A stretch of 32,296 nt of DNA from a virus: the IMG/VR virus record IMGVR_UViG_3300009705_000065, positions 1 to 32,296 of that record, one strand, 5' to 3'. Of this stretch, positions 14,117 to 25,497 are shown piece after piece; the first letter of the stretch is position 1; each line of letters starts with the position of its first letter. Both the position numbers and the translations under genes were made by a program. Under the pieces are notes generated by a model. The model did not search any database, was not told the DNA's origin, and was given only the letters and a program-made list of their open reading frames with translations.

Positions 14117-14407
14117 TCATTCATCTCCTTCTGTATTCCATTCGCCAAATTCATTTACTTCTTCTTCTTCTTCTTCACTTGATTCTATTACCCTTTGGTC
14201 ATTCATTGCTACAAATGCTAACTTCACATGATTAGCAGTTAATCTACTATTACTACTATCTCCACCTGCTTCTGCATCGCATAACTCTACCATTGATTTC
14301 ATTATCATTTCAATTCTAGTTTGAAACTCTAATACTGCTATCATCGGCAATTGCCTTTCGGGTGTTATATCTTCAAACATTCTTCTTATTTCTCTTACGC
14401 TAACCAT
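14117..14407 (-). CDS. Probable histone-fold protein with acidic tail (96 aa)
   Basis: The middle reads as a histone fold: a short helix VREIRRMFEDI, a long central helix IAVLEFQTRIEMIMKSMVEL (about residues 23-42, continuing CDAEA), a loop with SRLTANHV, and a last helix KLAFVAMN. 'R-L-T-x-x-H-V-x-x-A' after a long helix is typical of TAF/CENP-S/NF-Y-like and archaeal histone folds. A strongly acidic tail (ESSEEEEEEV) follows, unlike short archaeal histones. It could package viral DNA, compete with host histones or act as a transcription or repair cofactor. GGAGATGG precedes the ATG. Its end encodes the ligase ribosome binding site, so the two are co-translated. Confidence 0.6.
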   Translation of the reverse strand: MVSVREIRRMFEDITPERQLPMIAVLEFQTRIEMIMKSMVELCDAEAGGDSSNSRLTANHVKLAFVAMNDQRVIESSEEEEEEVNEFGEWNTEGDE

Positions 14408-14787
14408 TTTTCCATCTCCTGTTTATTAAAAAAGTATTTTGGACTACTCAATTGTTTAAGGTCGTGTGCAATCCAAACACTACCACTTAGAGAATCAACT
14501 CTAATTACTTCATACTTCTTTGTTGTCACTTCTGTTGTCACTTCTGGCCCTTTACCATATAGTTTAGTTATCTCTTGAGAAACTTTATCCATATTGTCTA
14601 GTACATATTTAATGACTAAAGGTTCTTGCACTTCTACATATCCCTCTCTATCCATTTCATACTCTCCTGTATTATTACACACATTACATTTACTACCGCT
14701 ACATATAGGGCATTGAATAATAAGTGGGCCAATCACAGGAAATCTTACTCTTCTGAATCGTCTAACTCTATCATCTGAATTCTGCAT
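14395..14787 (-). CDS. Zinc-ribbon protein with 'YEVIRV.SL' module (130 aa)
   Basis: An Arg-rich N-terminus (DDRVRRFRRVRFPVIGP) leads to a zinc ribbon CPICSGSKCNVCNNTG. After a helix, a C-terminal module KYEVIRVDSLSGSVWIAHDL is shared with the protein at 20505-20735. The ATG giving MQNSDDRV has AAAGGAA upstream and was preferred over one ten codons earlier. It overlaps both the protease gene and the histone-fold gene. Nucleic-acid binding is likely from the ribbon; the role is unknown. Confidence 0.65.
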   Translation of the reverse strand: MQNSDDRVRRFRRVRFPVIGPLIIQCPICSGSKCNVCNNTGEYEMDREGYVEVQEPLVIKYVLDNMDKVSQEITKLYGKGPEVTTEVTTKKYEVIRVDSLSGSVWIAHDLKQLSSPKYFFNKQEMEKWLA

Positions 14788-15251
14788 AATTGTTCCTTTC
14801 CGTATTGTTTCCACCATTTCATTTTCTGTCTATCACCTAGAACAATTGCTGAATCTAAGATAGGCTTTTGATTATTAATAGTCATCCAATCAGTTCCGCT
14901 AAAATATGCTTGACCAAAGGGATGTGTATGAATCCAACATTTCAAAGGAATCTTCATACCTTTAACTGATTCACCTTCATAGTCTACAAAACTTCTAGTT
15001 CCTTTACTGATAAATAGTTGGTTATCTCTATCAACAATTACTGATACTTCTTTCTCCTCTAGTATATCAACAGATAAATCCCAGATAACATTATGGAAAT
15101 GTTCACTATCAAAGTTATTACCTTCTCTAACGAATGCTTCTCTAACATTAGTCTTATGAAACTCCCAATGTGCATCAAGTATTGCTTTACCATATGCTAT
15201 AACTTCCTCGGCTTCCGCTAACACTTCTTCTACTAGTTTTTCTTCATTCAT
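14745..15251 (-). CDS. JAMM/JAB (MPN+) metalloprotease, candidate Ubl deconjugase
   Basis: The 168-aa protein carries WIHTHPFGQAYFSGTD, an exact H-x-H-x7-S-x2-D JAMM signature (His108, His110, Ser118, Asp121) for a zinc metalloprotease that cuts isopeptide or peptide bonds after a ubiquitin-like C-terminus. The catalytic Glu should lie upstream; several candidates are present around residues 65-95. The N-terminal 60 residues are helical. A di-glycine Ubl (25291-25497) and an E1-like enzyme (16495-17052) are encoded nearby, so maturation of the Ubl (removal of KA) or deconjugation is the likely job. DNA-repair RadC-type function is less likely because RadC sequence context is absent. Confidence 0.85.
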   Translation of the reverse strand: MNEEKLVEEVLAEAEEVIAYGKAILDAHWEFHKTNVREAFVREGNNFDSEHFHNVIWDLSVDILEEKEVSVIVDRDNQLFISKGTRSFVDYEGESVKGMKIPLKCWIHTHPFGQAYFSGTDWMTINNQKPILDSAIVLGDRQKMKWWKQYGKEQLCRIQMIELDDSEE

Positions 15252-15468
15252 TGATAATCACCTTATTGTTTACTAGTCTGTCTTTACTACATTCAGTAGG
15301 GTTAGAATGAACTTGTCCATTAACCCTAGCATTACATAGTTTAATATTAGTTTGTTCTTTAGTAATAACTTTACCACAGACTCTACAACTAGCATTTCCT
15401 GTTCCTGTTCCTACTAACCATTCTACTTTAGGTTTGTCTATCTTCTTTTCTATCTTTTCATCATTCAT
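15244..15468 (-). CDS. Zinc-finger protein, PARP-finger-like spacing (74 aa)
   Basis: Start placed at MNDEKIEKKIDK, preceded by GGTGA. The fold signature is CRVCGKVITKEQTNIKL followed by a distal VHSNPTEC, resembling the C2HC spacing of PARP-type or similar C2HC zinc fingers. It lies directly upstream of the JAMM gene and overlaps it by eight bases, so it may be a partner of the conjugation system, or simply one more zinc protein. Confidence 0.6.
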   Translation of the reverse strand: MNDEKIEKKIDKPKVEWLVGTGTGNASCRVCGKVITKEQTNIKLCNARVNGQVHSNPTECSKDRLVNNKVIINE

Positions 15469-15592
15469 TTTTTTCACCACATTTACATTCACTATCTAAT
15501 CTTCTACAAGCATCAACATAAGAAACACTATCATATGTTCCGTTATACCATGTTGATTCGCCACATCCTTTACAATTAATTGTTGTTCTCAT
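15461..15592 (-). CDS. Tiny C4 zinc-ribbon protein (43 aa)
   Basis: Begins MRTTINCKGCGESTWYNG and ends ECKCGEKNE, giving CxxCG at the start and CxCG at the end, a compact zinc ribbon. Both ends overlap neighbouring genes, and GATGAAGAAGAATG upstream is a shared stop/ribosome-site arrangement. Function unknown. Confidence 0.6.
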   Translation of the reverse strand: MRTTINCKGCGESTWYNGTYDSVSYVDACRRLDSECKCGEKNE

Positions 15593-15747
15593 TCTTCTTC
15601 ATCTCCATAAAAATATATTTGCATAATAAAATCCATGCCAAACTTAAGTGCTAAGGCATCAAGGATTTCATTACTTTCAAATAACATTGTTGCTATTTGC
15701 TCTTTGGTTAATTTCATTATTTCGTTTATATCATTTCCATCAATCAT
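15589..15747 (-). CDS. Small unknown protein (52 aa)
   Basis: Begins MIDGNDINEIMKLTKEQI and ends QIYFYGDEEE. It has helices and an aromatic C-terminal segment; the acidic tail encodes the next ribosome binding site. ATGA overlaps at both ends. No family recognised. Confidence 0.6.
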   Translation of the reverse strand: MIDGNDINEIMKLTKEQIATMLFESNEILDALALKFGMDFIMQIYFYGDEEE

Positions 15748-16286
15748 TCTTTCCACTCCTTTATCCATAACGGTGTTTCTCTTTTAGTATAATGCATAAA
15801 ACTTTTCTTTGCTTTCATATAATATGTTCTGTATGCTGTAATCGTGTCCTCATGTTTGTAAACCATAGGCATACATTGAGGAGGTTCTTTAAATCCAGCA
15901 TCAGGAATATTTACAGGGTTGTTCTTTAGTAAAACTCTTAGTTTCTTATCTGTTAGATGCACCTTACCATATCTATAAGTATATTCATCACATAAAGAAA
16001 CAAATAACTTGTATAGATACTCATAATGAGAAGATGAATACCTAACCCATTTACTACAAGGGTGATTAAAGTGTGCCATTTTATAGACAACATCTCTATT
16101 ATCTTTCATAATACCTATTTGAGTAAAAATATATTCATCATCAGCATTAGGTAGGTAAAATTGGTCTAATTCTCTATGAGCAGTACACATCATTTGTGCG
16201 CTTTCTAAAATCATTTTCACACAATGTTTATCATTATGCATTAATGCTGCGATAGACGGGTCTTTATGTAAGTAAAATATATTCAT
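15744..16286 (-). CDS. Conserved phage protein of the 'MNIFYLxxDPxxAA...DKH' family
   Basis: The 180-aa product opens MNIFYLHKDPSIAALMHNDK and keeps DKHCVKMILESAQM, HPCSKWVR, EYTYRYGK and YRTYYMKAKK. This set of motifs is familiar from a widespread family in T4-like and marine phages, sometimes labelled as related to pyrimidine-dimer glycosylases; its activity is not established. I recognise the family but not a proven function. It sits between the JAMM and E1 genes in one operon. GGTGAAGAAG precedes the ATG. Confidence 0.75.
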   Translation of the reverse strand: MNIFYLHKDPSIAALMHNDKHCVKMILESAQMMCTAHRELDQFYLPNADDEYIFTQIGIMKDNRDVVYKMAHFNHPCSKWVRYSSSHYEYLYKLFVSLCDEYTYRYGKVHLTDKKLRVLLKNNPVNIPDAGFKEPPQCMPMVYKHEDTITAYRTYYMKAKKSFMHYTKRETPLWIKEWKE

Positions 16287-16489
16287 TCTTCTTCACCTTC
16301 ATTCTTAAAGTACAAATTTACTAAAGTATCATAGTTTTCCATCCATGATAATAGTATTTTATTTGCTTCTTGACTACTTAAACCAAATTCTTCTACTAAG
16401 AAAGGAGTAGCACCATACATATTGGTTTTTCCACTTCGTCTTAGCACTTCTAAATATTTGAAATATACTATCCATTCTTCATCATACAT
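16283..16489 (-). CDS. Small conserved phage-type protein (68 aa)
   Basis: Begins MYDEEWIVYFKYLEVLRRSG with TNMYGATPFLVEEFGL and EANKILLSWMENY. This resembles a small helical family found beside the previous gene's family in marine phages: a short helix-turn-helix-like unit without a known role. The tail EGEEE carries the following ribosome site. GGGTGAT precedes the ATG. Confidence 0.65.
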   Translation of the reverse strand: MYDEEWIVYFKYLEVLRRSGKTNMYGATPFLVEEFGLSSQEANKILLSWMENYDTLVNLYFKNEGEEE

Positions 16490-16494
16490 TTAAA

Positions 16495-17052
16495 TCACCC
16501 GTTAATCCTGAAATGTTTCTCAACATGTTCTTCATTAAACCATCGTTGAATCCATTGTGCCCCATAACCTGCAATTACTACTTGCATGAAATGAACTCCT
16601 TCTGCTTTTCCTTCCCATGAATCTCCTTGACAACTAAAAGAACCATCTGGCCCACTTGTAAATGTTGTATAAAGTTTAGGGTCTTCTAAATGTGAAATCA
16701 TTGCAGCATTTCTCGCTTGTGCTCTCAAATCTAACCACTTTGCTTTAGAATTATACATTGTTCTACGAATATCTAAATTATCTGCACAACATACTACTAA
16801 ATCATAACCTTTCAGTTGATTAGCAGTTAATACAGGGAAAGGATGAGCCTTAATATCATATCTTGCACTCATAGCATTCACTTTCTTCATATCTAATTCA
16901 CTCTTATCAAAATTTTGATATGTTAAGTTCTTTTCTTCTATAATATCTGGGTCATATACATCTAATGTATATAATCCCGTCTTATCTAGTAAAGGAATTA
17001 GAAAACTACCAATTCCACCTGCTCCAATTATCATTACTTTTCTCTTAGTCAT
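16495..17052 (-). CDS. E1/ThiF/MoeB-like Ubl-activating enzyme
   Basis: A 185-aa Rossmann protein: GAGGIG at 10-15 for ATP, an acidic strand DVYDPDIIEEKNLTYQNF (31-48, the E1 'D.D.V...N..RQ' motif with Tyr for Arg), VVCCADNLDIRR (86-97, the D-x3-R motif), and Cys141 in GSFSCQGD as candidate catalytic Cys. It is shorter than MoeB/ThiF (about 240-250 aa) and lacks the zinc CxxC pairs. The family adenylates the C-terminal Gly of a ubiquitin-like protein. With the Ubl at 25291-25497 and the JAMM protease at 14745-15251 it forms a conjugation set. Sulfur transfer is the alternative. GAGGTGA precedes the ATG. Confidence 0.85.
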   Translation of the reverse strand: MTKRKVMIIGAGGIGSFLIPLLDKTGLYTLDVYDPDIIEEKNLTYQNFDKSELDMKKVNAMSARYDIKAHPFPVLTANQLKGYDLVVCCADNLDIRRTMYNSKAKWLDLRAQARNAAMISHLEDPKLYTTFTSGPDGSFSCQGDSWEGKAEGVHFMQVVIAGYGAQWIQRWFNEEHVEKHFRING

Positions 17053-17195
17053 TATTCTTCACCTCGCAATAGAACATATTCTACACTATCTTTAATCAAT
17101 AAAAGTAAATTAAGATTAGTTGTTGTTTCCCAATTTACACCTTTATTTCCATCAAACATTTTTGCAATACTTATTATCGTTTCTCTTTCATTCAT
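17052..17195 (-). CDS. Small unknown protein (47 aa)
   Basis: Begins MNERETIISIAKMFDGNKG and ends YVLLRGEE. Preceded by AAAGGTGAG from the end of the TFB gene; its own GAGGTGAAGAATAATG drives the E1-like gene with a TAATG overlap. It is therefore tightly coupled to TFB and E1. No family recognised. Confidence 0.6.
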   Translation of the reverse strand: MNERETIISIAKMFDGNKGVNWETTTNLNLLLLIKDSVEYVLLRGEE

Positions 17196-17197
17196 TT

Positions 17198-17821
17198 CTA
17201 TCTCACCTTTTTTAAGTTTCTTTTTAGTGCTGGTATACTAATACCAAATATTTTACAAGTCTCTTTTTGTGTTAGGTCACTACATTCATAGAATATAGCA
17301 CTTGCTAAACCTCTCGTTAAAGTATAAGGTAAATCTTGCACCATTTGATTTACCCTTGCTTCATCTAATGAAGACACTTCAGCAATATATGGTTTCAAAT
17401 CTTCTAAATTAAAGATACCTGTCCTGCTGAAATGCCTATTTATTATCTTAATTAATCTTCTTACTCTTGTTATGTTAGCCCCTGAAAACCTACAATACTC
17501 TTTAAGATACGTTAGTTGTTTTAAATCTCTAAGAGTGAAATAAGTTAAAGAACAATACCTTTCACTTAAAGTATATGTTCCAAACTTCCCTGTGAATAAT
17601 AAAGTATTATAATTATCCATTATATCTTTCTTATACCTTATCATGTTAAACTCACTCAATAGAATAGATAATTCGGGTTCGTTTTCTGTTCTGACGAAAC
17701 TTTCTGCGCCAACTTTGACCCAAATCCTATTCACTTGAATCAATCCACACACATTACATACTACTAAACTGATTCTTTTGTCTAAGGATAAATCCCTAGA
17801 ACTACAATTAAGACATGGCAT
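17198..17821 (-). CDS. TFB/TFIIB-like archaeal transcription initiation factor
   Basis: A 207-aa protein with an N-terminal zinc ribbon (Cys3, Cys6, Cys22, Cys25: CLNCSS ... VVCNVCGLIQ), a linker, then cyclin-like helices ending in a helix-turn-helix (YTLTRGLASAIFYECSD, then TQKETCKIFGISIPALKRNL). That order is the TFB plan: the ribbon recruits RNA polymerase, the cyclin repeats bind TBP-DNA and the BRE. Cellular TFB is about 300 aa, so one repeat or the B-finger is probably reduced. A virus-encoded TFB could redirect host polymerase to viral promoters. It overlaps the 405-aa gene by 14 bases. Confidence 0.8.
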   Translation of the reverse strand: MPCLNCSSRDLSLDKRISLVVCNVCGLIQVNRIWVKVGAESFVRTENEPELSILLSEFNMIRYKKDIMDNYNTLLFTGKFGTYTLSERYCSLTYFTLRDLKQLTYLKEYCRFSGANITRVRRLIKIINRHFSRTGIFNLEDLKPYIAEVSSLDEARVNQMVQDLPYTLTRGLASAIFYECSDLTQKETCKIFGISIPALKRNLKKVR

Positions 17822-19025
17822 CCCAATCTAACCTAATATCCATTTGGTCTTTCTCATGACCTGTGATATACCTTCCAACAGTTGATACTAATTTAACTAA
17901 CATAGGGTCATTCATACAAGCAAATGCTCTTGCTGCGAATTGGTCACCTACACTAGCACCACTAGATAAATTATCAATACAAATTGGGCCACTCCATGTG
18001 TGACCATGTTCACCCATAGGAATTACCGGTTCTTTAATAGTAGGTATTACATTTTCATTACCTACCGCTTTAGTTAATACATAAGTAGATACATCTTGTA
18101 TACCTCTCTTGGATTGATTATCAACAATCATCCAATCTGCTAACTTACCACGAACATACATGGCTAAAACTTCTTCACCATCACCCTTAGTAAACTTACC
18201 TCTCTTAATGACATCATAATCTCTTACCATGCTATCAAACAATTCCATTGCTCTCTTCTCAACAATATCCTGCATACGATTTTGTTTAAGGTATTCTTTC
18301 ATAATTGTGACCTGAGCGTTGGTTGGTTTATCACCCGTTGTTTTAAAGAATAACTCTTCACAGCCAATCATATACCACTTACCTTTCTTATGTCCATTAA
18401 GATAAGTATTGATAAATGTATTTAAATCTTTTAGACCCATCTCTCCCCATACACCACTACTTATCTCAACAGCAAAATTAGCAGGTGCTATTTGCATTAC
18501 ATTCATTCTACAATTATGCTCTACAATTTTACCTTCTAGTCTTTGGAAGAACTTATACGGAACTCTATTCTCCATAACATATGTAATGTTCTCAGGCATA
18601 TCAATACACCTTTGCATATAATCATCTAATGATTCATCTGCTTCTTCACCATCTCCATCAATATAACATGAACGAAAAATTGTTCTTGCTAAAGCCTTAA
18701 CTAATATATCTAAATTACCATACACACCATTAAGATTATACCTGATACCATCTTTACGCAATACTGCTAAATATCCACAGTTCCCAATACGAATTACAAT
18801 TGATTTCTTTTCACTCTCTCTACACAGTTCAACTACTCTCAAGGTTTTCTTAATAGCGTCAGTAAAACCTTCAATTGTTGGTTCTTTTGACGATGAAACA
18901 CTACTTCGTCTAGCATATATATCTATAGTCCTATCTCTAACAAATGCCCTAGATACTATCTTAGTTTGAATAACAGAATTCCTGTCATCGCTTGCGTGTC
19001 TTACTCTAAATTGTACTTCTCCCAT
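17808..19025 (-). CDS. Unknown 405-aa protein, possible E2-like C-terminal region
   Basis: Start placed at MGEVQFRVRHASDD, with AGGTGA five bases upstream. The N-terminal 200 residues are alpha/beta without a known motif. The middle has TNAQVTIMKEYLKQNR and MYVRGKLADWMIVDN. The end reads HGHTWSGPICIDNL followed by a long helix: His-rich, then Gly-x-Ile-Cys-Ile-Asp, then helix, which resembles the active-site strand of E2 enzymes ('HPN...G.ICLD') with Cys349 as candidate. With the E1-like gene two genes downstream this is suggestive only; general sequence similarity to E2 is weak. A structural or regulatory role is equally possible. Confidence 0.7.
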   Translation of the reverse strand: MGEVQFRVRHASDDRNSVIQTKIVSRAFVRDRTIDIYARRSSVSSSKEPTIEGFTDAIKKTLRVVELCRESEKKSIVIRIGNCGYLAVLRKDGIRYNLNGVYGNLDILVKALARTIFRSCYIDGDGEEADESLDDYMQRCIDMPENITYVMENRVPYKFFQRLEGKIVEHNCRMNVMQIAPANFAVEISSGVWGEMGLKDLNTFINTYLNGHKKGKWYMIGCEELFFKTTGDKPTNAQVTIMKEYLKQNRMQDIVEKRAMELFDSMVRDYDVIKRGKFTKGDGEEVLAMYVRGKLADWMIVDNQSKRGIQDVSTYVLTKAVGNENVIPTIKEPVIPMGEHGHTWSGPICIDNLSSGASVGDQFAARAFACMNDPMLVKLVSTVGRYITGHEKDQMDIRLDWDAMS

Positions 19026-19030
19026 TATAT

Positions 19031-20239
19031 TCACCTATTTCTTAGTAATTCATTAATCATTTCACTTGCAGCAGACTTACTCATACCTTCTACTGATTCT
19101 CCCCCAAGCCTATCAATGTATCTGATTTGTTTAGAGGTTGCTTCTACTTCATTAGAATCTGAAGGGTCAATAATACGCATCAAAGCATTAAGTTGTTTCT
19201 CCGATAATTCTCTTCGGCTAATGATTCTATTACGCATATCATTTAAGAAGCGATTCTCCCAATCATTACCACCCATATCAATAGTAAATAAGGGTATATC
19301 ATAATAGGAACATGCTTCCATTAGAGCATCATCATTATATTCAGCACCTGTTTCTTCTCTAATTTCGTTAGCCTTTAATCTAAGTTCTTCTCTACGAATT
19401 AAGAGTTTTGCTTCAGCCGCTTTCTTTTCAGTATCAACGACTTCAATTCTATCTGCTCTTTCACTATCTTTAATATCTAATTCAGTATTGAACTTATCCA
19501 TTCTAGCGTATAACAACTGAACATCTTTCCATAGTTTTTCATTAGGATAACCACGAGTTTCTATTTGCTTACGGTCATTATCAGGATGATTCCAACGCCA
19601 AACAACTGAAGCCATTTTACCTAATGAACCAACCTTAGTCTTAGCAATAGTCCAATGCTTTTCATAACGCTTTGTTTGATGGTCAAAGTAATTACCCTTA
19701 GACCTTACATTGATACGCAAATCTAATTCTTTTACTTCATCAAAGAACTCTTCCCAATCTTCTCCATGTTCAGTCCACCACCATTCTTCTTTCATAGTCT
19801 TAACTGATTCTTTAATCCATTCAAGGATTTTTTCTTCTGTAATAGCATCATCAGGTATTCCTTTAATCTCTTTCAAGTGACGAATAATCATCCAATTGGT
19901 AATATGTTCACTACCTAATACTTCTAATTCTCCATTAACAGTATTCTCTACTTCAAAGTGCCATGCAATTTGATGACCACATATACATTCTTTAGGGTGT
20001 TTATCTAAATGAACTTGAGGTAATCTATATGCAGGTGCTCTAATAGGGATATACCATACTTGTCCTGTAACTCGCCATTCATCTTTAGCCTCAGTCCAAT
20101 TATCTGCTTGACTAATTTCAGTTAACCTACTAATAAGTGCCTTGTTTAAAGCACCATTACGATTAACATTTATTTCAGTTCTTTCTTCTCCATCAGTAAG
20201 ATGAAGATACCTTCCAAATTCGTTTGTATATTCTACCAT
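19031..20239 (-). CDS. Phage-type zinc protein (402 aa) with C-terminal 'TSKQIRYI' module
   Basis: Near residue 85 a CICGHQIAWHFEV ... GSEHITNW block resembles a phage zinc-knuckle family in which CxCG is followed by a 'G-S-x-C/H-I' element. A long charged coiled coil lies around residues 270-320. At the end, EKQLNALMRII and then TSKQIRYIDRLGGE ... SAASEMINELL form two related helical units; the second matches the C-terminus of the HNH protein at 1617-2090. GGAGGAA precedes the ATG. The function is unknown; DNA binding is plausible. Confidence 0.65.
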   Translation of the reverse strand: MVEYTNEFGRYLHLTDGEERTEINVNRNGALNKALISRLTEISQADNWTEAKDEWRVTGQVWYIPIRAPAYRLPQVHLDKHPKECICGHQIAWHFEVENTVNGELEVLGSEHITNWMIIRHLKEIKGIPDDAITEEKILEWIKESVKTMKEEWWWTEHGEDWEEFFDEVKELDLRINVRSKGNYFDHQTKRYEKHWTIAKTKVGSLGKMASVVWRWNHPDNDRKQIETRGYPNEKLWKDVQLLYARMDKFNTELDIKDSERADRIEVVDTEKKAAEAKLLIRREELRLKANEIREETGAEYNDDALMEACSYYDIPLFTIDMGGNDWENRFLNDMRNRIISRRELSEKQLNALMRIIDPSDSNEVEATSKQIRYIDRLGGESVEGMSKSAASEMINELLRNR

Positions 20240-20241
20240 AA

Positions 20242-20499
20242 TTATTCCTCCATATCCATAACTGCAAACATTAATTGCTCTTCTAAATAACCATCACATA
20301 ATTGATTTAACTTTTCTGCTAGGCTTTGTGCAATTCCAGGAATTGTATTACGGTGTAATCCTAACCATATCTTATGTGCTTGGTTAATTACTATAACACA
20401 ACTAGTTCCATCTGTTTCATTACCCTTAAAAATAAGTGCTGGTAATTCGTTATCTTCTATCAATCTAAATTCTATTTCTTTCTTTGGTTTCATTTGCAT
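20242..20499 (-). CDS. Unknown small protein (85 aa)
   Basis: The ATG giving MQMKPKKEIEFRLIED has GGAG eight bases upstream; a GTG three codons earlier is also open. The pattern is strand-rich first, then a helix with IAQSLAEKLNQL. The end MDMEE encodes part of the next ribosome binding site. Lies in the operon that starts near 20735. No family recognised. Confidence 0.65.
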   Translation of the reverse strand: MQMKPKKEIEFRLIEDNELPALIFKGNETDGTSCVIVINQAHKIWLGLHRNTIPGIAQSLAEKLNQLCDGYLEEQLMFAVMDMEE

Positions 20500-20504
20500 T
20501 TCAA

Positions 20505-20735
20505 TCACTCCATGTCTATTAAATACTCTAAGGGCGACTTCCTCAAAGTTTGTTTGGATAGTATAATGTGTGGGAACTTATTTAGTAGTAAAGGGATAAT
20601 AACATTATAGTCAATATCACTCTCATACGATTTAGTCCATACACTACCGTTGCTTTTAAGGCTCGTCACCCTAACAACTTCATACTTTTCATCTTTCTCT
20701 TCTATCTCTTTTTCATAATCCTTGCTTTCGCTCAT
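20505..20735 (-). CDS. Small protein with 'YEVVRV.SL' module (76 aa)
   Basis: A charged N-terminus (SKDYEKEIEEKDE) leads to KYEVVRVTSLKSNGSVWTKS, matching the C-terminal module of the zinc-ribbon protein at 14395-14787 (KYEVIRVDSLSGSVW). First gene of a long minus-strand operon, preceded by AAGGAT and by a candidate TATA box. It may share a binding partner with the other module carrier. Confidence 0.65.
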   Translation of the reverse strand: MSESKDYEKEIEEKDEKYEVVRVTSLKSNGSVWTKSYESDIDYNVIIPLLLNKFPHIILSKQTLRKSPLEYLIDME

Positions 20736-20835
20736 TGTATCATATCCTTATTTTTGTCCATTTTGAAAAAAGTCCTAATCTTCCTGACTTTATAGAGGGT
20801 GGAAGTCCTCGTTTTAATTACTTATACATAATGTA
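20736..20835 (-). promoter_or_regulatory. Intergenic promoter/terminator region before a long operon
   Basis: This 100-base gap follows the ribonucleotide reductase stop. On the minus strand it holds TCTATAAAG, a good archaeal TATA box, about 60 bases before the ATG at 20735. It also holds a short GAGG/CCTC stem and a run of six T. Termination of the reductase transcript and a new start for the 20735 operon are both plausible. Confidence 0.4.
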
Positions 20836-22695
20836 TTAGATTTCACATGAACTTCCAGCACATGCAATCTCTCCTTGTAAATCTGTATTGTCTGATAACT
20901 CAATAACTTTTGTCAAATCAATGTTGGTTAACTCCTTCAATAACTTGTCATATTTGTACTGTGTAATGCTCTCAAACGGTGCTTGTTTATATGAACCGCC
21001 ATCGTGAGGTAAGACACTTAAACCGTTGTAAAATTGCCTGTTAGTCCACATCCAATTAGCAACATTCTCCCATTCGGAATCTCTAATACTTATTGTGGCT
21101 GAAACATTATGAGTATTCATTCCTTGAGTATGTCCTGCTTTAACCCAAGTAGATGCTACTAATTTAACACGCTCTAATAAATCAATTGCTGATTCATCTC
21201 TAGTGATAGCACCCTTTGGTGCTTTCTGAGGAATACTAATTACTGCTGTATCATGTGGTCTAAAATAACAATCTTCAATTAGAGTAGGTTGCTTCATTTT
21301 TAAATAAGAATAGATTGCTTCATTCTTACCCACTCTTAATCTTCTAATATAATACTTGTCATGGTAAGCATGAATACCTGAAGAAGTTCCTAATACACAC
21401 GAAGTAGTTCCTGCAGGTTTAACACAAGTAATTCTTGTTGCAGGTTTAATACCTATTAGTTCTGCAATAGTTAAGTTAACTTTCTTAGCAATAATTGCTG
21501 CTTCTTCTAAATCTAATTTTAACACTTTATTAGAAGCAATACCTGTCATACTAACTCCAAGTAGTGCATCTTTCTCAGTTGTAGTTCTCCATATATCTCT
21601 AAGATAATGAAAATCAGTATAACCTGCTTGAAGAGTTCCTAAAAGAGTAGCGGCTGCGACTCTTGAGTTTAAATCTTCTTGACTAACAACATCACTAACA
21701 TTAATCTCGGTAAGATTACAAAATTGATTTGGTCTAAGAGCAATTTCACAACAAGGATTAGTTCCCCAATCCTTATCATTACTAAAGTAAATCCCCGGTT
21801 CTCCTGCACCACTATTTTTTATTCTTTCCCATAGTTCCATGAAGAACTTTTTATTAACTCTACTCCTAATTAGTACAGCACTATTGTTTGCTCTACCTCT
21901 TTGTGGGTTTAGTTCCCACCATGAACCTGTCTTAGCAGTAATCATATCCATATCATCAGCACTAAATAAACTAATTAATGCTGCTCTACGAATGCCACCT
22001 GCTAATACTGAATCAGCAATATGACAAAGAATATCATGAGCATCTATTGGAGTTAATCTATCTCCTGTCTCTTTAAGTTGTAGCATGTTTTCTATCTTAA
22101 CCATACATTCTTTAAGTGGTTGAGGGCCGGGTGCTTTACCACCAGATGTGACTAATCTTTCTCCTTTAGCACGAATATCAGAATAATCAAAGATAGGGAA
22201 TGGTTTTGATGTGCCGAAGTAAGCCTTCATTAATACTTTAATTGCATCAGCCCATCCTTCAATTGAATCACCAATTAAAAATCTCTTAGTCTTTTTCTTA
22301 TTAGGTTGTTGGATAGAAGGTAATAGGTCTATGTGATGATATTGTACTGAATACCCCACACCTGTTCCACCTAACAATAAAAACATTGCTTCGTTAAAAG
22401 CCTCTAAACAATCAACAGGCATATAAGCACAATTGTATATTCTATTAGGTGCTACTTCAATTGATTTACCACCAAATTGTAATGACCTCATGCTGGGTAA
22501 TACTTTCTTAGGTGATACATGTAAAGCATATACATCTTCTATTTGTTCACTTAGATGTGGATAATTCTTAATATGCATTACCATATTCCTATAAATTAAG
22601 TCACTCCAAGTTTCTCTTCTATTTTTATCAGCAACATACTTAGCATACTTCATATGTACAGTAATATCGGATAATATTTCATTCGCTATATTCAT
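20836..22695 (-). CDS. nrdJ: Adenosylcobalamin-dependent (class II) ribonucleotide reductase
   Basis: The 619-aa product has the reductase hallmarks: RIYNCAYMPVD (N-terminal redox Cys), EAFNEAMFLLLGGTGVGYSV, NPCCEIALRPNQFCNLTEIN (radical-site Cys and second redox Cys), KPAGTTSCVLGTSSGIH, and a C-terminal ACAGSSCEI redox pair. This pattern is that of the monomeric B12-dependent triphosphate reductase type, which makes dNTPs without oxygen or a small subunit. It is shorter than bacterial RTPR (about 740 aa). It would supply dNTPs for viral replication, given a host that makes or imports cobalamin. GGAG lies nine bases before the ATG used, inside the upstream gene's end. Confidence 0.95.
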   Translation of the reverse strand: MNIANEILSDITVHMKYAKYVADKNRRETWSDLIYRNMVMHIKNYPHLSEQIEDVYALHVSPKKVLPSMRSLQFGGKSIEVAPNRIYNCAYMPVDCLEAFNEAMFLLLGGTGVGYSVQYHHIDLLPSIQQPNKKKTKRFLIGDSIEGWADAIKVLMKAYFGTSKPFPIFDYSDIRAKGERLVTSGGKAPGPQPLKECMVKIENMLQLKETGDRLTPIDAHDILCHIADSVLAGGIRRAALISLFSADDMDMITAKTGSWWELNPQRGRANNSAVLIRSRVNKKFFMELWERIKNSGAGEPGIYFSNDKDWGTNPCCEIALRPNQFCNLTEINVSDVVSQEDLNSRVAAATLLGTLQAGYTDFHYLRDIWRTTTEKDALLGVSMTGIASNKVLKLDLEEAAIIAKKVNLTIAELIGIKPATRITCVKPAGTTSCVLGTSSGIHAYHDKYYIRRLRVGKNEAIYSYLKMKQPTLIEDCYFRPHDTAVISIPQKAPKGAITRDESAIDLLERVKLVASTWVKAGHTQGMNTHNVSATISIRDSEWENVANWMWTNRQFYNGLSVLPHDGGSYKQAPFESITQYKYDKLLKELTNIDLTKVIELSDNTDLQGEIACAGSSCEI

Positions 22696-22696
22696 T

Positions 22697-23143
22697 TCAT
22701 TCCACTCCTTTTCTTGTAGGGCAACTATCCCATTCATCAAATTGCCCTTTTAGTTTACCATATTTTTTATCCACTATTATCCAATCCATTGATTCATCCC
22801 AAACGATTTCATCAAGGTGTTTTAATGCTTCTATTCCTTCTACCTCAAAGAACTTTATAAAGTCAATATATACATTATCTCTATAAGTAAATTTGAAAGT
22901 TCCACTCGCCATAATCTCAGACTTGCGGCTATTTCCAATAACATAACCATCGGTATAAAAGTTTGGATTGGTAAGGATAACATCTAACTCTACAAGAGAA
23001 TCACTAAACACATGTATTGGCTTGTAGTCAATTGCTTTCCAACCTAAAACCTTTAAATCTGATTCAAACATTCTCTTAGATAAGAACCATTCTTCGTAAT
23101 TATCATCTATCTCATACTTATCTATAAATTCATTTCTTTTCAT
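22697..23143 (-). CDS. Unknown protein (148 aa)
   Basis: Start at MKRNEFIDKYEIDDN, six bases after AGGGG; an ATG two codons earlier overlaps the upstream stop. Trp- and Tyr-rich alpha/beta protein (DESMDWIIVDKKYG) without Cys pairs or nucleotide motifs. Its end supplies the reductase ribosome binding site, so the two are co-translated. No family recognised. Confidence 0.65.
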   Translation of the reverse strand: MKRNEFIDKYEIDDNYEEWFLSKRMFESDLKVLGWKAIDYKPIHVFSDSLVELDVILTNPNFYTDGYVIGNSRKSEIMASGTFKFTYRDNVYIDFIKFFEVEGIEALKHLDEIVWDESMDWIIVDKKYGKLKGQFDEWDSCPTRKGVE

Positions 23144-23145
23144 CT

Positions 23146-23388
23146 TCATCCCCTCTTAATTAATATCTCGCCTTCTTTCCGGAATACCTTTCTAACGCTA
23201 GAGCGTATTTCATGATAAACTCCTCTTGATTTTGGAGAACCAGCAACAGAAATTAATTTAATAGTTCCTGTTATTGGATTTTCTACTCTAAAGATAATAT
23301 GTTTGTTCATATACCAATCTAGCACATTAACTCCTGTGCTTTCTATCTCATCAATTATCTTTTTTATGTCCTTTCTACTCGTTGTCAA
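23146..23388 (-). CDS. HicA-like small protein, TTG start (80 aa)
   Basis: Pattern: SRKDIKKIIDEIESTG, then YMNKHIIFRV, then ISVAGSPKSRGVYHEIRSSV. This is the alpha-beta-beta-beta-alpha order of HicA/YcfA-type double-stranded-RNA-binding folds, with the His in the 'KH-I-F' strand where HicA has its catalytic His. No HicB antitoxin is adjacent, and phages often carry solitary members. The frame has no ATG before the conserved part; TTG overlaps the upstream TGA and has AAGGTGAT before it. Confidence 0.5.
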   Translation of the reverse strand: MTTSRKDIKKIIDEIESTGVNVLDWYMNKHIIFRVENPITGTIKLISVAGSPKSRGVYHEIRSSVRKVFRKEGEILIKRG

Positions 23389-23474
23389 TTAATCATCACC
23401 TTTATAACATATTTATTACCCATATTCTTCCTATTCTTCCACTTGACAAAAAAATTAGGAAGTTCTTGTTCCAT
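23385..23474 (-). CDS. Tiny ORF upstream of the HicA-like gene (29 aa)
   Basis: Begins MEQELPNFFVKWKNRKN and ends VIKVMIN. AGAGGTGA lies before the ATG, and its stop overlaps the TTG start of the HicA-like gene. It may be a real microprotein or serve to couple translation to the TTG start. No motif. Confidence 0.45.
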   Translation of the reverse strand: MEQELPNFFVKWKNRKNMGNKYVIKVMIN

Positions 23475-23476
23475 AG

Positions 23477-24106
23477 TCACCTCTTTTCATTATATTTTTG
23501 GTATTGGTTGCCTTTGATTAGGTTATCTTCAGCCCATAGCGGTTGTAAATTGCTTAATGCCCAACACTCCATGAATTGCTCATCCCCGTATTCGTTAATA
23601 ATGTATTTAGACTTAGGCTTAATGTGGTCTATATGCCAATCACCGTAATTACCCCAATCCATACCATACCAGAAATTCATTTCTAAGTGCTTAACTAATT
23701 GTTCAGGGGTGTAATCTATGCTGTACCAGAAGGAGTTTGTCTTCTCCAGGTTTAATCTTTTACAAAACTGATATACTTGTGTACTTATTCTATCTTGAAT
23801 TAGAAATGCTTTGTCTTCTTTTCTTTTACGAGCAATATAAATTCTTTTCTGCTCTCTATACCTTTCTGGATGATTCTCTCTATACTCTCTACATCTAGTA
23901 GCATTATCTTTCCTAAAGTATTTATTGTTCTTATTGTATTTCTTTTGGAATGCTCTATGACATAACTTACACTTACTCATATAAAATATAGTTTCCTTAC
24001 CTTTTCGTTTGTATGAGTAGTAATCGTTCTGCTTTTTAGAGTGTAAGCAGAAATTGCATTGTTTAGTTTCTAGGTATTTGGGTGAGTCTATCTTTAATTT
24101 TACCAT
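23477..24106 (-). CDS. HNH endonuclease with N-terminal zinc fingers (209 aa)
   Basis: N-terminal CNFCLHSKKQNDYYSYKRK and CKLCHRAFQKKY are two CxxC units typical of phage HNH homing-type enzymes. A basic helical linker follows, then the catalytic region DWHIDHIKPKS ... CWALSNLQPLWAEDN with the HNH residues (HIDH, N, N in SNLQPL and EDNLIKGN). It probably cuts DNA site-specifically and spreads as a free-standing mobile gene. It sits between nucleotide-metabolism genes and the tRNAs, and overlaps the upstream gene by 44 bases, consistent with insertion. Earlier in-frame ATGs exist but lie further into that gene. Confidence 0.8.
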   Translation of the reverse strand: MVKLKIDSPKYLETKQCNFCLHSKKQNDYYSYKRKGKETIFYMSKCKLCHRAFQKKYNKNNKYFRKDNATRCREYRENHPERYREQKRIYIARKRKEDKAFLIQDRISTQVYQFCKRLNLEKTNSFWYSIDYTPEQLVKHLEMNFWYGMDWGNYGDWHIDHIKPKSKYIINEYGDEQFMECWALSNLQPLWAEDNLIKGNQYQKYNEKR

Positions 24107-24296
24107 AACAATCATCACACACCACCGCCCACTTAGAATTAACAGTTGCACTACCATTATTTCCGCTAATTATACTCATGTCACAATGAGCAGAACCATA
24201 ATGAGCATATAATAATATATCTACTGCTTTTTTTAAGTTGCCCTCAAAGGGTTCTTTCATCATTTTAGTTTTCTTGTCACATCTTATACATTGCAT
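24063..24296 (-). CDS. Small zinc protein (77 aa)
   Basis: Begins MQCIRCDKKTKMMKEP, with a second pair VVCDDCYGKI near residue 60 and SAHCDMS between, so a four-Cys zinc site with a long middle loop. GAGGAGGAAATTAAAATG gives a strong ribosome site just after the tRNA genes. Its 3' end is overlapped by the HNH gene. Function unknown. Confidence 0.6.
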   Translation of the reverse strand: MQCIRCDKKTKMMKEPFEGNLKKAVDILLYAHYGSAHCDMSIISGNNGSATVNSKWAVVCDDCYGKIKDRLTQIPRN

Positions 24297-24324
24297 TTTA
24301 ATTTCCTCCTCTTGTAATAAATAA

Positions 24325-24399
24325 TGGCGGGCTTATCGGGAGTTGAACCCGAATCCTCGGCTTAGAAGGCCAAGATGCTATCCATTACACCATAAGCCC
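24325..24399 (-). tRNA. tRNA-Arg (anticodon UCU)
   Basis: Acceptor stem GGGCTTA/TAAGCCC, D arm with GTGT/GCAT (one G-U pair), anticodon stem TTGGC/GCCGA with loop CTTCTAA (anticodon TCT), T arm TCGGG-TTCAACT-CCCGA. G73 is followed by an encoded CCA (24325-24327). It reads AGA, a common codon in these AT-rich genes, so it probably supplements the host. Confidence 0.93.
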
Positions 24400-24411
24400 A
24401 TTGAATATAAG

Positions 24412-24493
24412 TGCTGAATGTAGGATTTGAACCTACGAAACATTATGTAGTGGAACTTAAGCCCACCGCCTTTGACCACTTGGCTAATTCAGC
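24412..24493 (-). tRNA. tRNA-Leu (anticodon UAA)
   Basis: Acceptor GCTGAAT/ATTCAGC with A73, anticodon stem GTGGG/TCCAC around CTTAAGT (anticodon TAA), a long type II variable arm (ACAT-A-ATGT hairpin) as required for tRNA-Leu, and T arm GTAGG-TTCAAAT-CCTAC. CCA is not encoded. It reads UUA, another AT-rich codon used heavily here. Confidence 0.93.
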
Positions 24494-24504
24494 ATGTTAT
24501 TTGT

Positions 24505-24840
24505 TTAACTATCTAATTGATAGTCAGATATATCTAAGCCATATGCTGTAGCATAAGAGCAAAGTGTATCTAGGTCTTCTTTTATTATTAACTTGTCATC
24601 TTTTTTCATACTCGGTATCATAAGAAGAAACTCGTGTAGCATTATCTTCTTTACTTTACTTGCATCTTCACCTAAATCTGTACCTTGTTCAAAGTGATAA
24701 AGGAATGTTGCTATGATACCTGTTTCTTTTTCCCTTTTAACAAAGGCTGCTTCTTCTTTACTCATTAACCTGAATGTTTTCCATACTTGAGGAATTGTTC
24801 TACATAAATTGTAGAAATCTTTTATAAACCTCTTAAACAT
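24505..24840 (-). CDS. Unknown helical protein (111 aa)
   Basis: Start placed at MFKRFIKDFYNLCRTIPQ, where AGGATGGATG lies upstream in the end of the previous gene; a longer frame is open, but its extra part lies inside that gene and has no ribosome site. Mainly helical, with an amphipathic start and an acidic end (GLDISDYQLDS). Ends eleven bases before the tRNA-Leu gene. Family not recognised. Confidence 0.65.
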   Translation of the reverse strand: MFKRFIKDFYNLCRTIPQVWKTFRLMSKEEAAFVKREKETGIIATFLYHFEQGTDLGEDASKVKKIMLHEFLLMIPSMKKDDKLIIKEDLDTLCSYATAYGLDISDYQLDS

Positions 24841-25153
24841 TTTCATCCATCCTTTTGAAATAATAAAACGCATCTTTAGCCTTGTTGAATTGTGCTGATT
24901 CTCCCATTGTTCTGTGATAATGAATATTATTAGATACCCACCTACTAAGTTGATAGGTTTTACCTTCACCATTTTGAGCGAGGAAAGATTCTGATGTAAG
25001 TAATTCCTCTAACTGTTCTAATGGTGCTTTGATAGGAAATTTCTTATGATAAAACGGGTGACTGTATGTTCCTATTCTACTTGAAGTAGTAAACTCCATA
25101 AGTTTTACTATTCCAATCAAATCCTCTATTTCATTAAACCTTCGCCATAACAT
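24833..25153 (-). CDS. Unknown protein (106 aa)
   Basis: Begins MLWRRFNEIEDLIGIVKLM and contains YHKKFPIKAPLEQLEEL and LSRWVSNNIHYHRTMG. It has no Cys pair or nucleotide motif. GAGGAA precedes the ATG. It is separated from the Ubl gene upstream by a hairpin with a T-run, so it probably heads its own transcript or depends on read-through. Confidence 0.65.
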   Translation of the reverse strand: MLWRRFNEIEDLIGIVKLMEFTTSSRIGTYSHPFYHKKFPIKAPLEQLEELLTSESFLAQNGEGKTYQLSRWVSNNIHYHRTMGESAQFNKAKDAFYYFKRMDENV

Positions 25154-25167
25154 AATTATTCCTCAAT

Positions 25168-25199
25168 AAAAAAATCCCATTTTGATAAAGGAGATGGGA
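25168..25199 (-). terminator. Hairpin plus T-run terminator after the Ubl operon
   Basis: On the minus strand TCCCAT pairs with ATGGGA around a 13-base loop and is followed at once by seven T. This is a bacterial-style intrinsic terminator shape; archaeal polymerase can stop at the T-run alone. The 90 bases between it and the Ubl stop (25200-25290) hold no gene or tRNA that I can see. Confidence 0.6.
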
Positions 25200-25290
25200 A
25201 ACTCCTATGGGGTTGAGTATTTTACGGAGATATTCAAACTCCATATGCCAAGTTGCATACTAACTAAAGAGACTTAAGCAATTACCCTAA

Positions 25291-25497
25291 TCAGGCTTTG
25301 CCACCGACAATTGCATGTGTCAATACCACATCTTCTACATTGTTAAAATCAATGTTTGGTAGTTCTTCTCTCGTTACTAATTCTCCATCAATGTACGCCC
25401 AATGTGTAGGATGTTCAATGATTTGGTCTAATGCTTCACTTGCACTAAGAGTTAGTTCGGTATGCCCTGTTTCATTTAAAATTGTTATCTTTACCAT
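25291..25497 (-). CDS. Ubiquitin-like protein with C-terminal di-glycine (68 aa)
   Basis: Reads as a beta-grasp domain: first strands MVKITILNETGHTELTLS form a hairpin, helix ASEALDQIIEHP, strand HWAYIDGELVTREEL, and last strand EDVVLTHAIVGG. The C-terminus is GGKA: Gly65-Gly66 as in ubiquitin, SAMP and ThiS-type proteins, with two extra residues that a protease would remove. It is therefore a candidate substrate of the E1-like enzyme (16495-17052) and JAMM protease (14745-15251). AAGGTGATG precedes the ATG. It lies after the 106-aa gene at 25509-25829 in a short unit with its own control region and terminator. ThiS/MoaD-like sulfur carrier is the alternative. Confidence 0.75.
   Translation of the reverse strand: MVKITILNETGHTELTLSASEALDQIIEHPTHWAYIDGELVTREELPNIDFNNVEDVVLTHAIVGGKA

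What the first reader, a model, noticed from the sequence alone, without database searches (positions are those of the whole stretch)
14745..25497. Virus-encoded ubiquitin-like conjugation system (Ubl, E1, JAMM, possible E2)
A 68-aa beta-grasp-like protein ends in Gly-Gly-Lys-Ala (25291-25497). An E1/ThiF-like enzyme with GAGGIG, D-x3-R and Cys141 lies at 16495-17052, and a protease with an exact H-x-H-x7-S-x2-D JAMM signature at 14745-15251. The KA after the di-glycine is what a JAMM protease would trim. Bacterial gene sets with E1, E2, JAB and Ubl members (PRTRC plasmid cassettes, CBASS and Bil-type defence) show such sets are functional units. Here the parts are spread over about 10.7 kb among archaeal replication and transcription genes, without nucleotide-cyclase partners. 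A role in modifying viral or host proteins, or in virion assembly, is inferred.
Basis: partly seen in the sequence, partly recalled or inferred. Interest (0 to 1): 0.9.

Follow-up and report, generated by a model that had tools for sequence, protein, structure and literature searches.

The report
Archaeal virus ubiquitin-like modifier system
This marine archaeal virus and its relatives all carry a three-gene kit (a small ubiquitin-like protein, the enzyme that activates it and the protease that trims or removes it), which suggests that a whole order of abundant ocean viruses tags proteins, or moves sulfur, with its own ubiquitin-like system.

Summary
The window is a fragment of a magrovirus-like genome (relatives of 84-103 kb in IMG/VR). 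Ubl (25291-25497): 77 of 77 distinct homologues keep the C-terminal Gly-Gly; 71 follow it with a variable 1-9-residue cap, 6 end at GG. AlphaFold gives a beta-grasp fold (pLDDT 83.5) whose Foldseek neighbours are ubiquitin, NEDD8, SUMO, ThiS and TtuB. E1 (16495-17052): Pfam ThiF 2e-14, with ATP-site residues and Cys141 invariant in 93 of 93. JAMM (14745-15251): Glu, HxH, Ser, Asp invariant in 109 of 109. Order and strand are fixed (Ubl, E1, JAMM) in 129 loci; all 22 long Ubl-bearing genomes also have E1 and JAMM, and absences fall at contig ends. Ubl and E1 have the lowest dN of the replication-module genes compared. No E2 was found. Intact JAMM persists where the Ubl already ends at GG, so it probably does more than trim caps. 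I favour an E2-less, SAMP-like conjugation-deconjugation cycle; a capped sulfur carrier (QbsE/PtmS2-like) is the main rival. In the open library searched, viral E1/ThiF genes had been noted; the Ubl and the three-gene unit I did not find described. Targets are unknown.

The parts
25291..25497 (-). Ubl: 68-aa beta-grasp protein ending ...AIVGG-KA
   Evidence: AlphaFold pLDDT 83.5 with beta-grasp order; Foldseek neighbours ubiquitin, NEDD8, SUMO, ThiS, TtuB; GG invariant 77/77
25294..25305 (-). codons of Gly65-Gly66 (25300-25305) and of the two-residue cap Lys67-Ala68 (25294-25299)
   Evidence: sequence; cap length and sequence vary among relatives, GG does not
16495..17052 (-). E1: 185-aa minimal ThiF/E1-type activating enzyme
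   Evidence: Pfam ThiF 2.1e-14; profile hits UBA5, MccB, MoeB, Uba4, Cap2
16630..16632 (-). codon of Cys141, candidate thioester cysteine of the E1 (GSFSCQG)
   Evidence: invariant in 93/93 distinct E1 sequences
14745..15251 (-). JAMM: 168-aa metalloprotease-type protein
   Evidence: Prok-JAB hit in 31 of 33 members, best 4.5e-5; profile hits AMSH/STAMBP at 0.0015; AlphaFold pLDDT 91.6
14889..14930 (-). JAMM motif H108-T-H110-x7-S118-x2-D121; the catalytic Glu68 is encoded at 15048-15050
   Evidence: all five residues invariant in 109/109 distinct sequences
14395..14817 (-). candidate accessory, membership not shown: zinc-ribbon protein (CPxC...CxxC) whose ORF overlaps the end of JAMM
   Evidence: family in 159 loci with invariant cysteines; ORF overlap
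15244..15492 (-). candidate accessory, membership not shown: 82-aa C..C..H..C protein overlapping the start of JAMM
   Evidence: 34 loci only; ORF overlap

Best explanation
The three genes form one virus-encoded ubiquitin-like system of magroviruses (tailed viruses of Poseidoniales archaea). Proposed cycle: the JAMM protease trims the 1-9-residue cap to expose the di-glycine; the E1 adenylates the terminal glycine and holds it, probably as a thioester on Cys141; without an E2, as in archaeal sampylation by UbaA, the Ubl is joined to lysines of viral or host proteins during replication; the JAMM removes it again. Shown: the three genes, invariant catalytic residues, invariant GG, strict co-occurrence, strong purifying selection. 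Inferred from family knowledge: trimming and activation. Inferred with less support: conjugation rather than sulfur transfer, and targets in replication or transcription.
For: E1 is ThiF-type. JAMM matches Prok-JAB and AMSH. The Ubl has a predicted beta-grasp fold. GG invariant in 77/77 with hypervariable caps. Catalytic residues invariant in 109/109 JAMMs and 93/93 E1s. Fixed order and strand in 129 loci; all 22 long Ubl-bearing genomes have E1 and JAMM; reverse tests from JAMM and PolB find no absence that a contig end does not explain. Low dN for Ubl and E1. JAMM stays intact in viruses whose Ubl ends at GG, which argues for cleaving conjugates. No rhodanese or PAPS reductase in 22 genomes. 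E2-less conjugation with a JAMM desampylase has precedent in archaea (PMC4895103; PMC4443979).
Against: No E2 was found, and the UQ_con search was uncontrolled. No conjugate has been observed. The Ubl is a beta-grasp protein only by prediction, with Foldseek E-values no better than 0.007. The 1-2-residue caps are just like those of sulfur carriers (PMC6006322). The E1 has Tyr45 where most E1s have Arg (NLxRQ). The Ubl gene lies kilobases away from E1 and JAMM.
Confidence: 0.5

Rival explanations
1. Capped sulfur carrier. The JAMM exposes the GG, the E1 makes the acyl-adenylate, a host sulfurtransferase converts it to a thiocarboxylate, and the Ubl donates sulfur to a tRNA, nucleotide or cofactor, as QbsE/QbsD or PtmS2/PtmS1 do. 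The Ubl is not joined to proteins.
For: The E1 is minimal, closest in NCBIfam to ThiF, with no E2. The virus carries two tRNA genes.
Against: No rhodanese and no PAPS reductase in 22 long genomes, with controls positive; no thiolating enzyme in the Pfam scans of a near-complete relative. Uncapped Ubls still travel with intact JAMM, although uncapped sulfur carriers need no trimming.
Confidence: 0.3
2. The three proteins do not act together: the E1 activates another substrate (for example a host Ubl or a peptide, as MccB does), the JAMM acts on host Ubl conjugates as a counter-defence, and the GG protein is an unrelated small protein.
For: The Ubl gene is 2.4-8.3 kb from the E1 gene with other genes between. 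crAss001 and FpV4 have the E1-JAMM pair where I saw no clear separate Ubl.
Against: GG invariance with a variable cap, a predicted ubiquitin-like fold and full co-occurrence with fixed order and strand.
Confidence: 0.12
3. A ThiF/ThiS or MoeB/MoaD cofactor pathway captured from a cell, as the GenBank label 'thiamine biosynthesis protein' on phage relatives suggests.
For: ThiF and MoeB models are among the best NCBIfam hits of the E1.
Against: Scores far below the equivalog cut-offs (45.5 against 159 and 43.7 against 275); no other thi or moa gene seen; capped GG plus JAMM is not the ThiS arrangement; no cellular relative of the Ubl.
Confidence: 0.03

Closest known systems
Archaeal sampylation (SAMP1/SAMP2, UbaA E1, HvJAMM1; Haloferax volcanii)
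   Same: Beta-grasp Ubl with terminal GG, one E1, a JAMM protease, no known E2, archaeal host range
   Different: SAMPs are cellular (that they end directly at GG is recalled, not tested); here virus-encoded and usually capped. The E1 scores 30 bits against a cut-off of 450 for the UbaA model
E1-JAMM pair of crAss-like phages (crAss001 gp76-gp77) and Flavobacterium phage FpV4
   Same: Adjacent ThiF-type E1 and JAMM in the replication region of a tailed virus of about 90-100 kb; similar JAMM core ('FFSGTD')
   Different: The crAss proteins are about twice as long with extra domains, hosts are bacteria, and no small GG-ending Ubl shared by crAss001 and cr106_1 was seen in the stretches scanned
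Capped sulfur-carrier cassettes (QbsCDE, PdtFGH, PtmS1/S2/S4)
   Same: GG followed by a 1-2-residue cap, a JAMM protease and an E1 (PMC6006322)
   Different: No sulfur source or acceptor enzyme found in the virus; JAMM kept even when the Ubl is uncapped
CBASS type II (Cap2/Cap3), Bil, PRTRC and 6A-type bacterial E1-E2-JAB sets
   Same: E1 and JAMM in one genetic unit; E1 domain detectably related (PADLOC E1-E2 1e-10)
   Different: No E2 domain, no cyclase; the E1 is a free-standing 185-aa protein; virus core gene rather than a defence operon
Lambda-type tail proteins I (Ubl) and K (JAB + NlpC/P60)
   Same: Phage-encoded Ubl with a JAB peptidase (PMC1779556)
   Different: Tail module, no E1, fused domains; here replication module, separate proteins, with E1

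Membership tests
Ubiquitin-like beta-grasp modifier | beta-grasp fold | tested here: met
   AlphaFold pLDDT 83.5, strand-strand-helix-strand-strand-strand; Foldseek top hits ubiquitin-like, E 0.007 and weaker, TM 0.4-0.6; no sequence-level hit
Ubiquitin-like beta-grasp modifier | C-terminal Gly-Gly, free or exposed by proteolysis | tested here: met
   77/77 distinct homologues
Ubiquitin-like beta-grasp modifier | covalent attachment to lysines of target proteins | not testable with these tools
   needs biochemistry or proteomics
E1/ThiF superfamily | Rossmann ATP site (GxGGxG, Asp, Asn, Gln, Lys, Asp) | tested here: met
   Pfam ThiF 2.1e-14; residues invariant in 93/93. The Arg of NLxRQ is replaced by Tyr in most members
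E1/ThiF superfamily | catalytic cysteine | tested here: inconclusive
   Cys141 invariant in 93/93, but its place in the active site was not modelled
JAMM/MPN+ protease | Glu plus H-x-H-x7-S-x2-D | tested here: met
   109/109
JAMM/MPN+ protease | JAB/MPN domain by profile or fold | tested here: met
   31 of 33 members hit Prok-JAB, best 4.5e-5; AMSH 0.0015; the window protein alone is below Pfam's cut-off and Foldseek is weak, RadC 0.036
Archaeal sampylation (SAMP/UbaA) | E1 of the UbaA equivalog family | tested here: not met
   30.1 bits against cut-off 450
Capped sulfur-carrier cassette | capped GG with JAMM and E1 | tested here: met
Capped sulfur-carrier cassette | co-encoded sulfur source or acceptor enzyme | tested here: not met
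   no rhodanese, no PAPS reductase in 22 genomes; host supply not excluded
CBASS/Bil/PRTRC-type E1-E2-JAB operons | E2 domain or protein | tested here: inconclusive
   none in Pfam scans; the UQ_con search had no positive control; a divergent E2 is not excluded
PRTRC ThiF | score above the TIGR03736 cut-off | tested here: not met
   30.6 bits against 144.75
Magrovirales (host Poseidoniales) | 90-110 kb dsDNA genome, opposed replication and morphogenesis modules, PolB replisome, DNA ligase | tested here: met
   relatives of 84-103 kb; G005 has opposed modules; criteria from PMC12999244; no named magrovirus record was available for direct comparison

The most novel reading that the evidence does not exclude
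An order of abundant marine archaeal viruses depends on its own complete, E2-less ubiquitin-like conjugation and deconjugation system, which tags viral or host replication and transcription proteins during infection.
Probability: 0.45. Interest if true: 0.88.

Novelty: new variant of a known kind. Interest (0 to 1): 0.74.

Why it matters
A ubiquitin-like modifier with its own activating and removing enzymes, kept by every sufficiently complete genome examined in a virus order, would be an unusually clear case of a prokaryotic virus running reversible protein tagging. It gives a small, defined three-protein set that can be reconstituted in vitro to ask how E2-less conjugation chooses targets, and it may explain what the E1/ThiF genes reported as common in archaeal viruses are for.

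Tried and rejected
E2: Pfam scans of conserved window genes and about 30 proteins of near-complete genome G005 gave no E2; the UQ_con search was negative but uncontrolled. The 180-aa gene between E1 and JAMM (15744-16286) resembles a DNA-repair family weakly (Pyr_excise 0.0011) and does not look like an E2. CysH, reported in some magroviruses (PMC10160649), is absent from 22 triad genomes. Cellular source: no Ubl relative in the genome collection of 84,980 species; E1 hits above 50% identity were virus-like contigs binned into bacterial MAGs. crAss001 gp76 has a QTAIVGG stretch near its N-terminus, but the cr106_1 homologue does not, so I treat it as probable chance. Foldseek with the JAMM model gave only weak hits, RadC then cytidine deaminases; I reject a deaminase because the JAMM residues are invariant and the best sequence hits are JAB proteins. 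The founding magrovirus paper (PMC5434244) is not held.
Full report
WHAT THE WINDOW IS. The window is a 32,296-base virus record. Almost all genes run on the minus strand: family-B DNA polymerase, PCNA-like, RFC small subunit, ATP-dependent ligase, B12-type ribonucleotide reductase, a TFIIB-like zinc protein and two tRNA genes (some of these names rest on sequence features rather than on a family hit). Relatives in IMG/VR are 84-103 kb, and G005 has opposed replication and structural modules, as described for Magrovirales, viruses of Poseidoniales (PMC12999244). The placement is by size, layout and gene content; no named magrovirus record was available to compare.

THE THREE GENES. Ubl, 25291-25497: no family or sequence hit. 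AlphaFold on 12 homologues gives pLDDT 83.5 and the order strand-strand-helix-strand-strand-strand with a disordered tail. Foldseek's top PDB hits are almost all ubiquitin-like proteins, among them NEDD8, ubiquitin, SUMO, ThiS and TtuB; E-values are 0.007 and weaker and TM-scores 0.4-0.6, so the fold is credible but predicted. Across 77 distinct homologues the GG is invariant; what follows is 0 residues in 6, 1 in 31, 2 in 36 and 4-9 in 4, with free sequence. E1, 16495-17052: ThiF 2.1e-14; the profile hits UBA5, MccB, MoeB, Uba4 and Cap2; ATP-site residues and Cys141 are invariant in 93 sequences. At 185 aa it has no room for an E2 or rhodanese domain. JAMM, 14745-15251: Glu68, His108, His110, Ser118 and Asp121 are invariant in 109 sequences; 31 of 33 diverse members hit Prok-JAB; the profile hits AMSH, a deubiquitinase, at 0.0015 over the motif. 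In a pLDDT 91.6 model Glu68 begins a strand, HxH lies at the end of one and Asp121 lies at a helix start, which fits the JAMM layout; the Foldseek search with this model was weak (RadC 0.036).

THEY GO TOGETHER. In 27 first-round records, all 16 that hold the three genes have them on one strand in the order Ubl, E1, JAMM; every record lacking one ends within the distance where it should be. With wider sets, 129 loci hold all three, none with a strand mismatch, Ubl-E1 2.4-8.3 kb and E1-JAMM from slight overlap of open frames to 2.0 kb (loci cut from one record overlap, so these are not 129 independent genomes). All 22 Ubl-bearing genomes of 84-103 kb have E1 and JAMM. Reverse tests: JAMM-selected records have the Ubl in 15 of 18; PolB-selected records have the E1 in 14 of 17 and the Ubl in 11 of 17. 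In the missing cases the expected position lies at or beyond a contig end, judged from coordinates; G068 and G058 are borderline. In record G019 E1 and JAMM are 6 bases apart. Against G005, dN is 0.09 for the Ubl and 0.13 for the E1 at dS about 1, the lowest of the early genes compared.

MECHANISM. The GG plus cap implies proteolytic maturation, and JAMM is the obvious protease; a Haloferax JAMM cuts precisely after a SAMP GG (PMC4443979). E1 activation of the exposed glycine follows from family knowledge. Two outcomes remain. Conjugation: archaeal sampylation uses the noncanonical E1 UbaA (PMC4895103), and E2 and E3 enzymes had not been detected in archaea (PMC2948915). For conjugation: intact JAMM persists in viruses whose Ubl is already uncapped, and no rhodanese or PAPS reductase is encoded in 22 genomes. 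Against: no E2, no conjugates known, and the host could supply sulfur enzymes. I put conjugation at about 0.5 and sulfur transfer at 0.3.

WHAT WAS KNOWN. A host-prediction study noted that a ThiF/MoeB gene is among the most prevalent auxiliary genes of archaeal viruses and mentioned ubiquitination (PMC8276007). The magrovirus and related papers held mention neither ubiquitin, ThiF nor JAB; the founding paper was not readable. Phage Ubl-JAB pairs are known from lambda-type tails (PMC1779556). crAss001 and FpV4 carry an adjacent E1-JAMM pair with a similar JAMM core. I found no earlier description of the magrovirus Ubl or of the three-gene unit, within an incomplete library. Hence 'new variant of a known kind'.

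Noticed in passing
L273 / record G065 (184,733 bases): Holds two E1 and two Ubl genes about 90 kb apart: probably two magrovirus genomes joined, or a dimer.
   Followed up: no
L215, L216, L217: Contigs in bacterial MAGs (Altibacter sp., Maricaulis sp.) that encode a magrovirus-type E1 at 56-57% identity: virus contigs probably mis-binned into bacterial genomes.
   Followed up: no
L326:28695-31093; L327:25916-28348; L328:2686-4618: crAss001, cr106_1 and Flavobacterium phage FpV4 carry an adjacent ThiF-type E1 and JAMM gene; annotated only as thiamine biosynthesis, metalloprotease or hypothetical.
   Followed up: partly
14395-14817 and 20505-20735: Both proteins contain a similar stretch (KYEVIRVDSLSGSVW / KYEVVRVTSLKSNGSVW); the first adds a zinc ribbon and overlaps the JAMM gene.
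   Followed up: no
19031-20239: 402-aa protein with an invariant CxCGH-like motif, found in 123 loci, no family hit.
   Followed up: no
L317 / record G066 (92,771 bases): The E1 gene is split across the two contig ends, so the record looks like a circularly permuted, complete genome.
   Followed up: no
L036:17783-18835: An IMP dehydrogenase/GMP reductase gene (Pfam 2.9e-91) lies next to PolB in G005; no counterpart was found in the window.
   Followed up: no
24325-24493: Two tRNA genes, tRNA-Arg (TCT) and tRNA-Leu (TAA), side by side.
   Followed up: no
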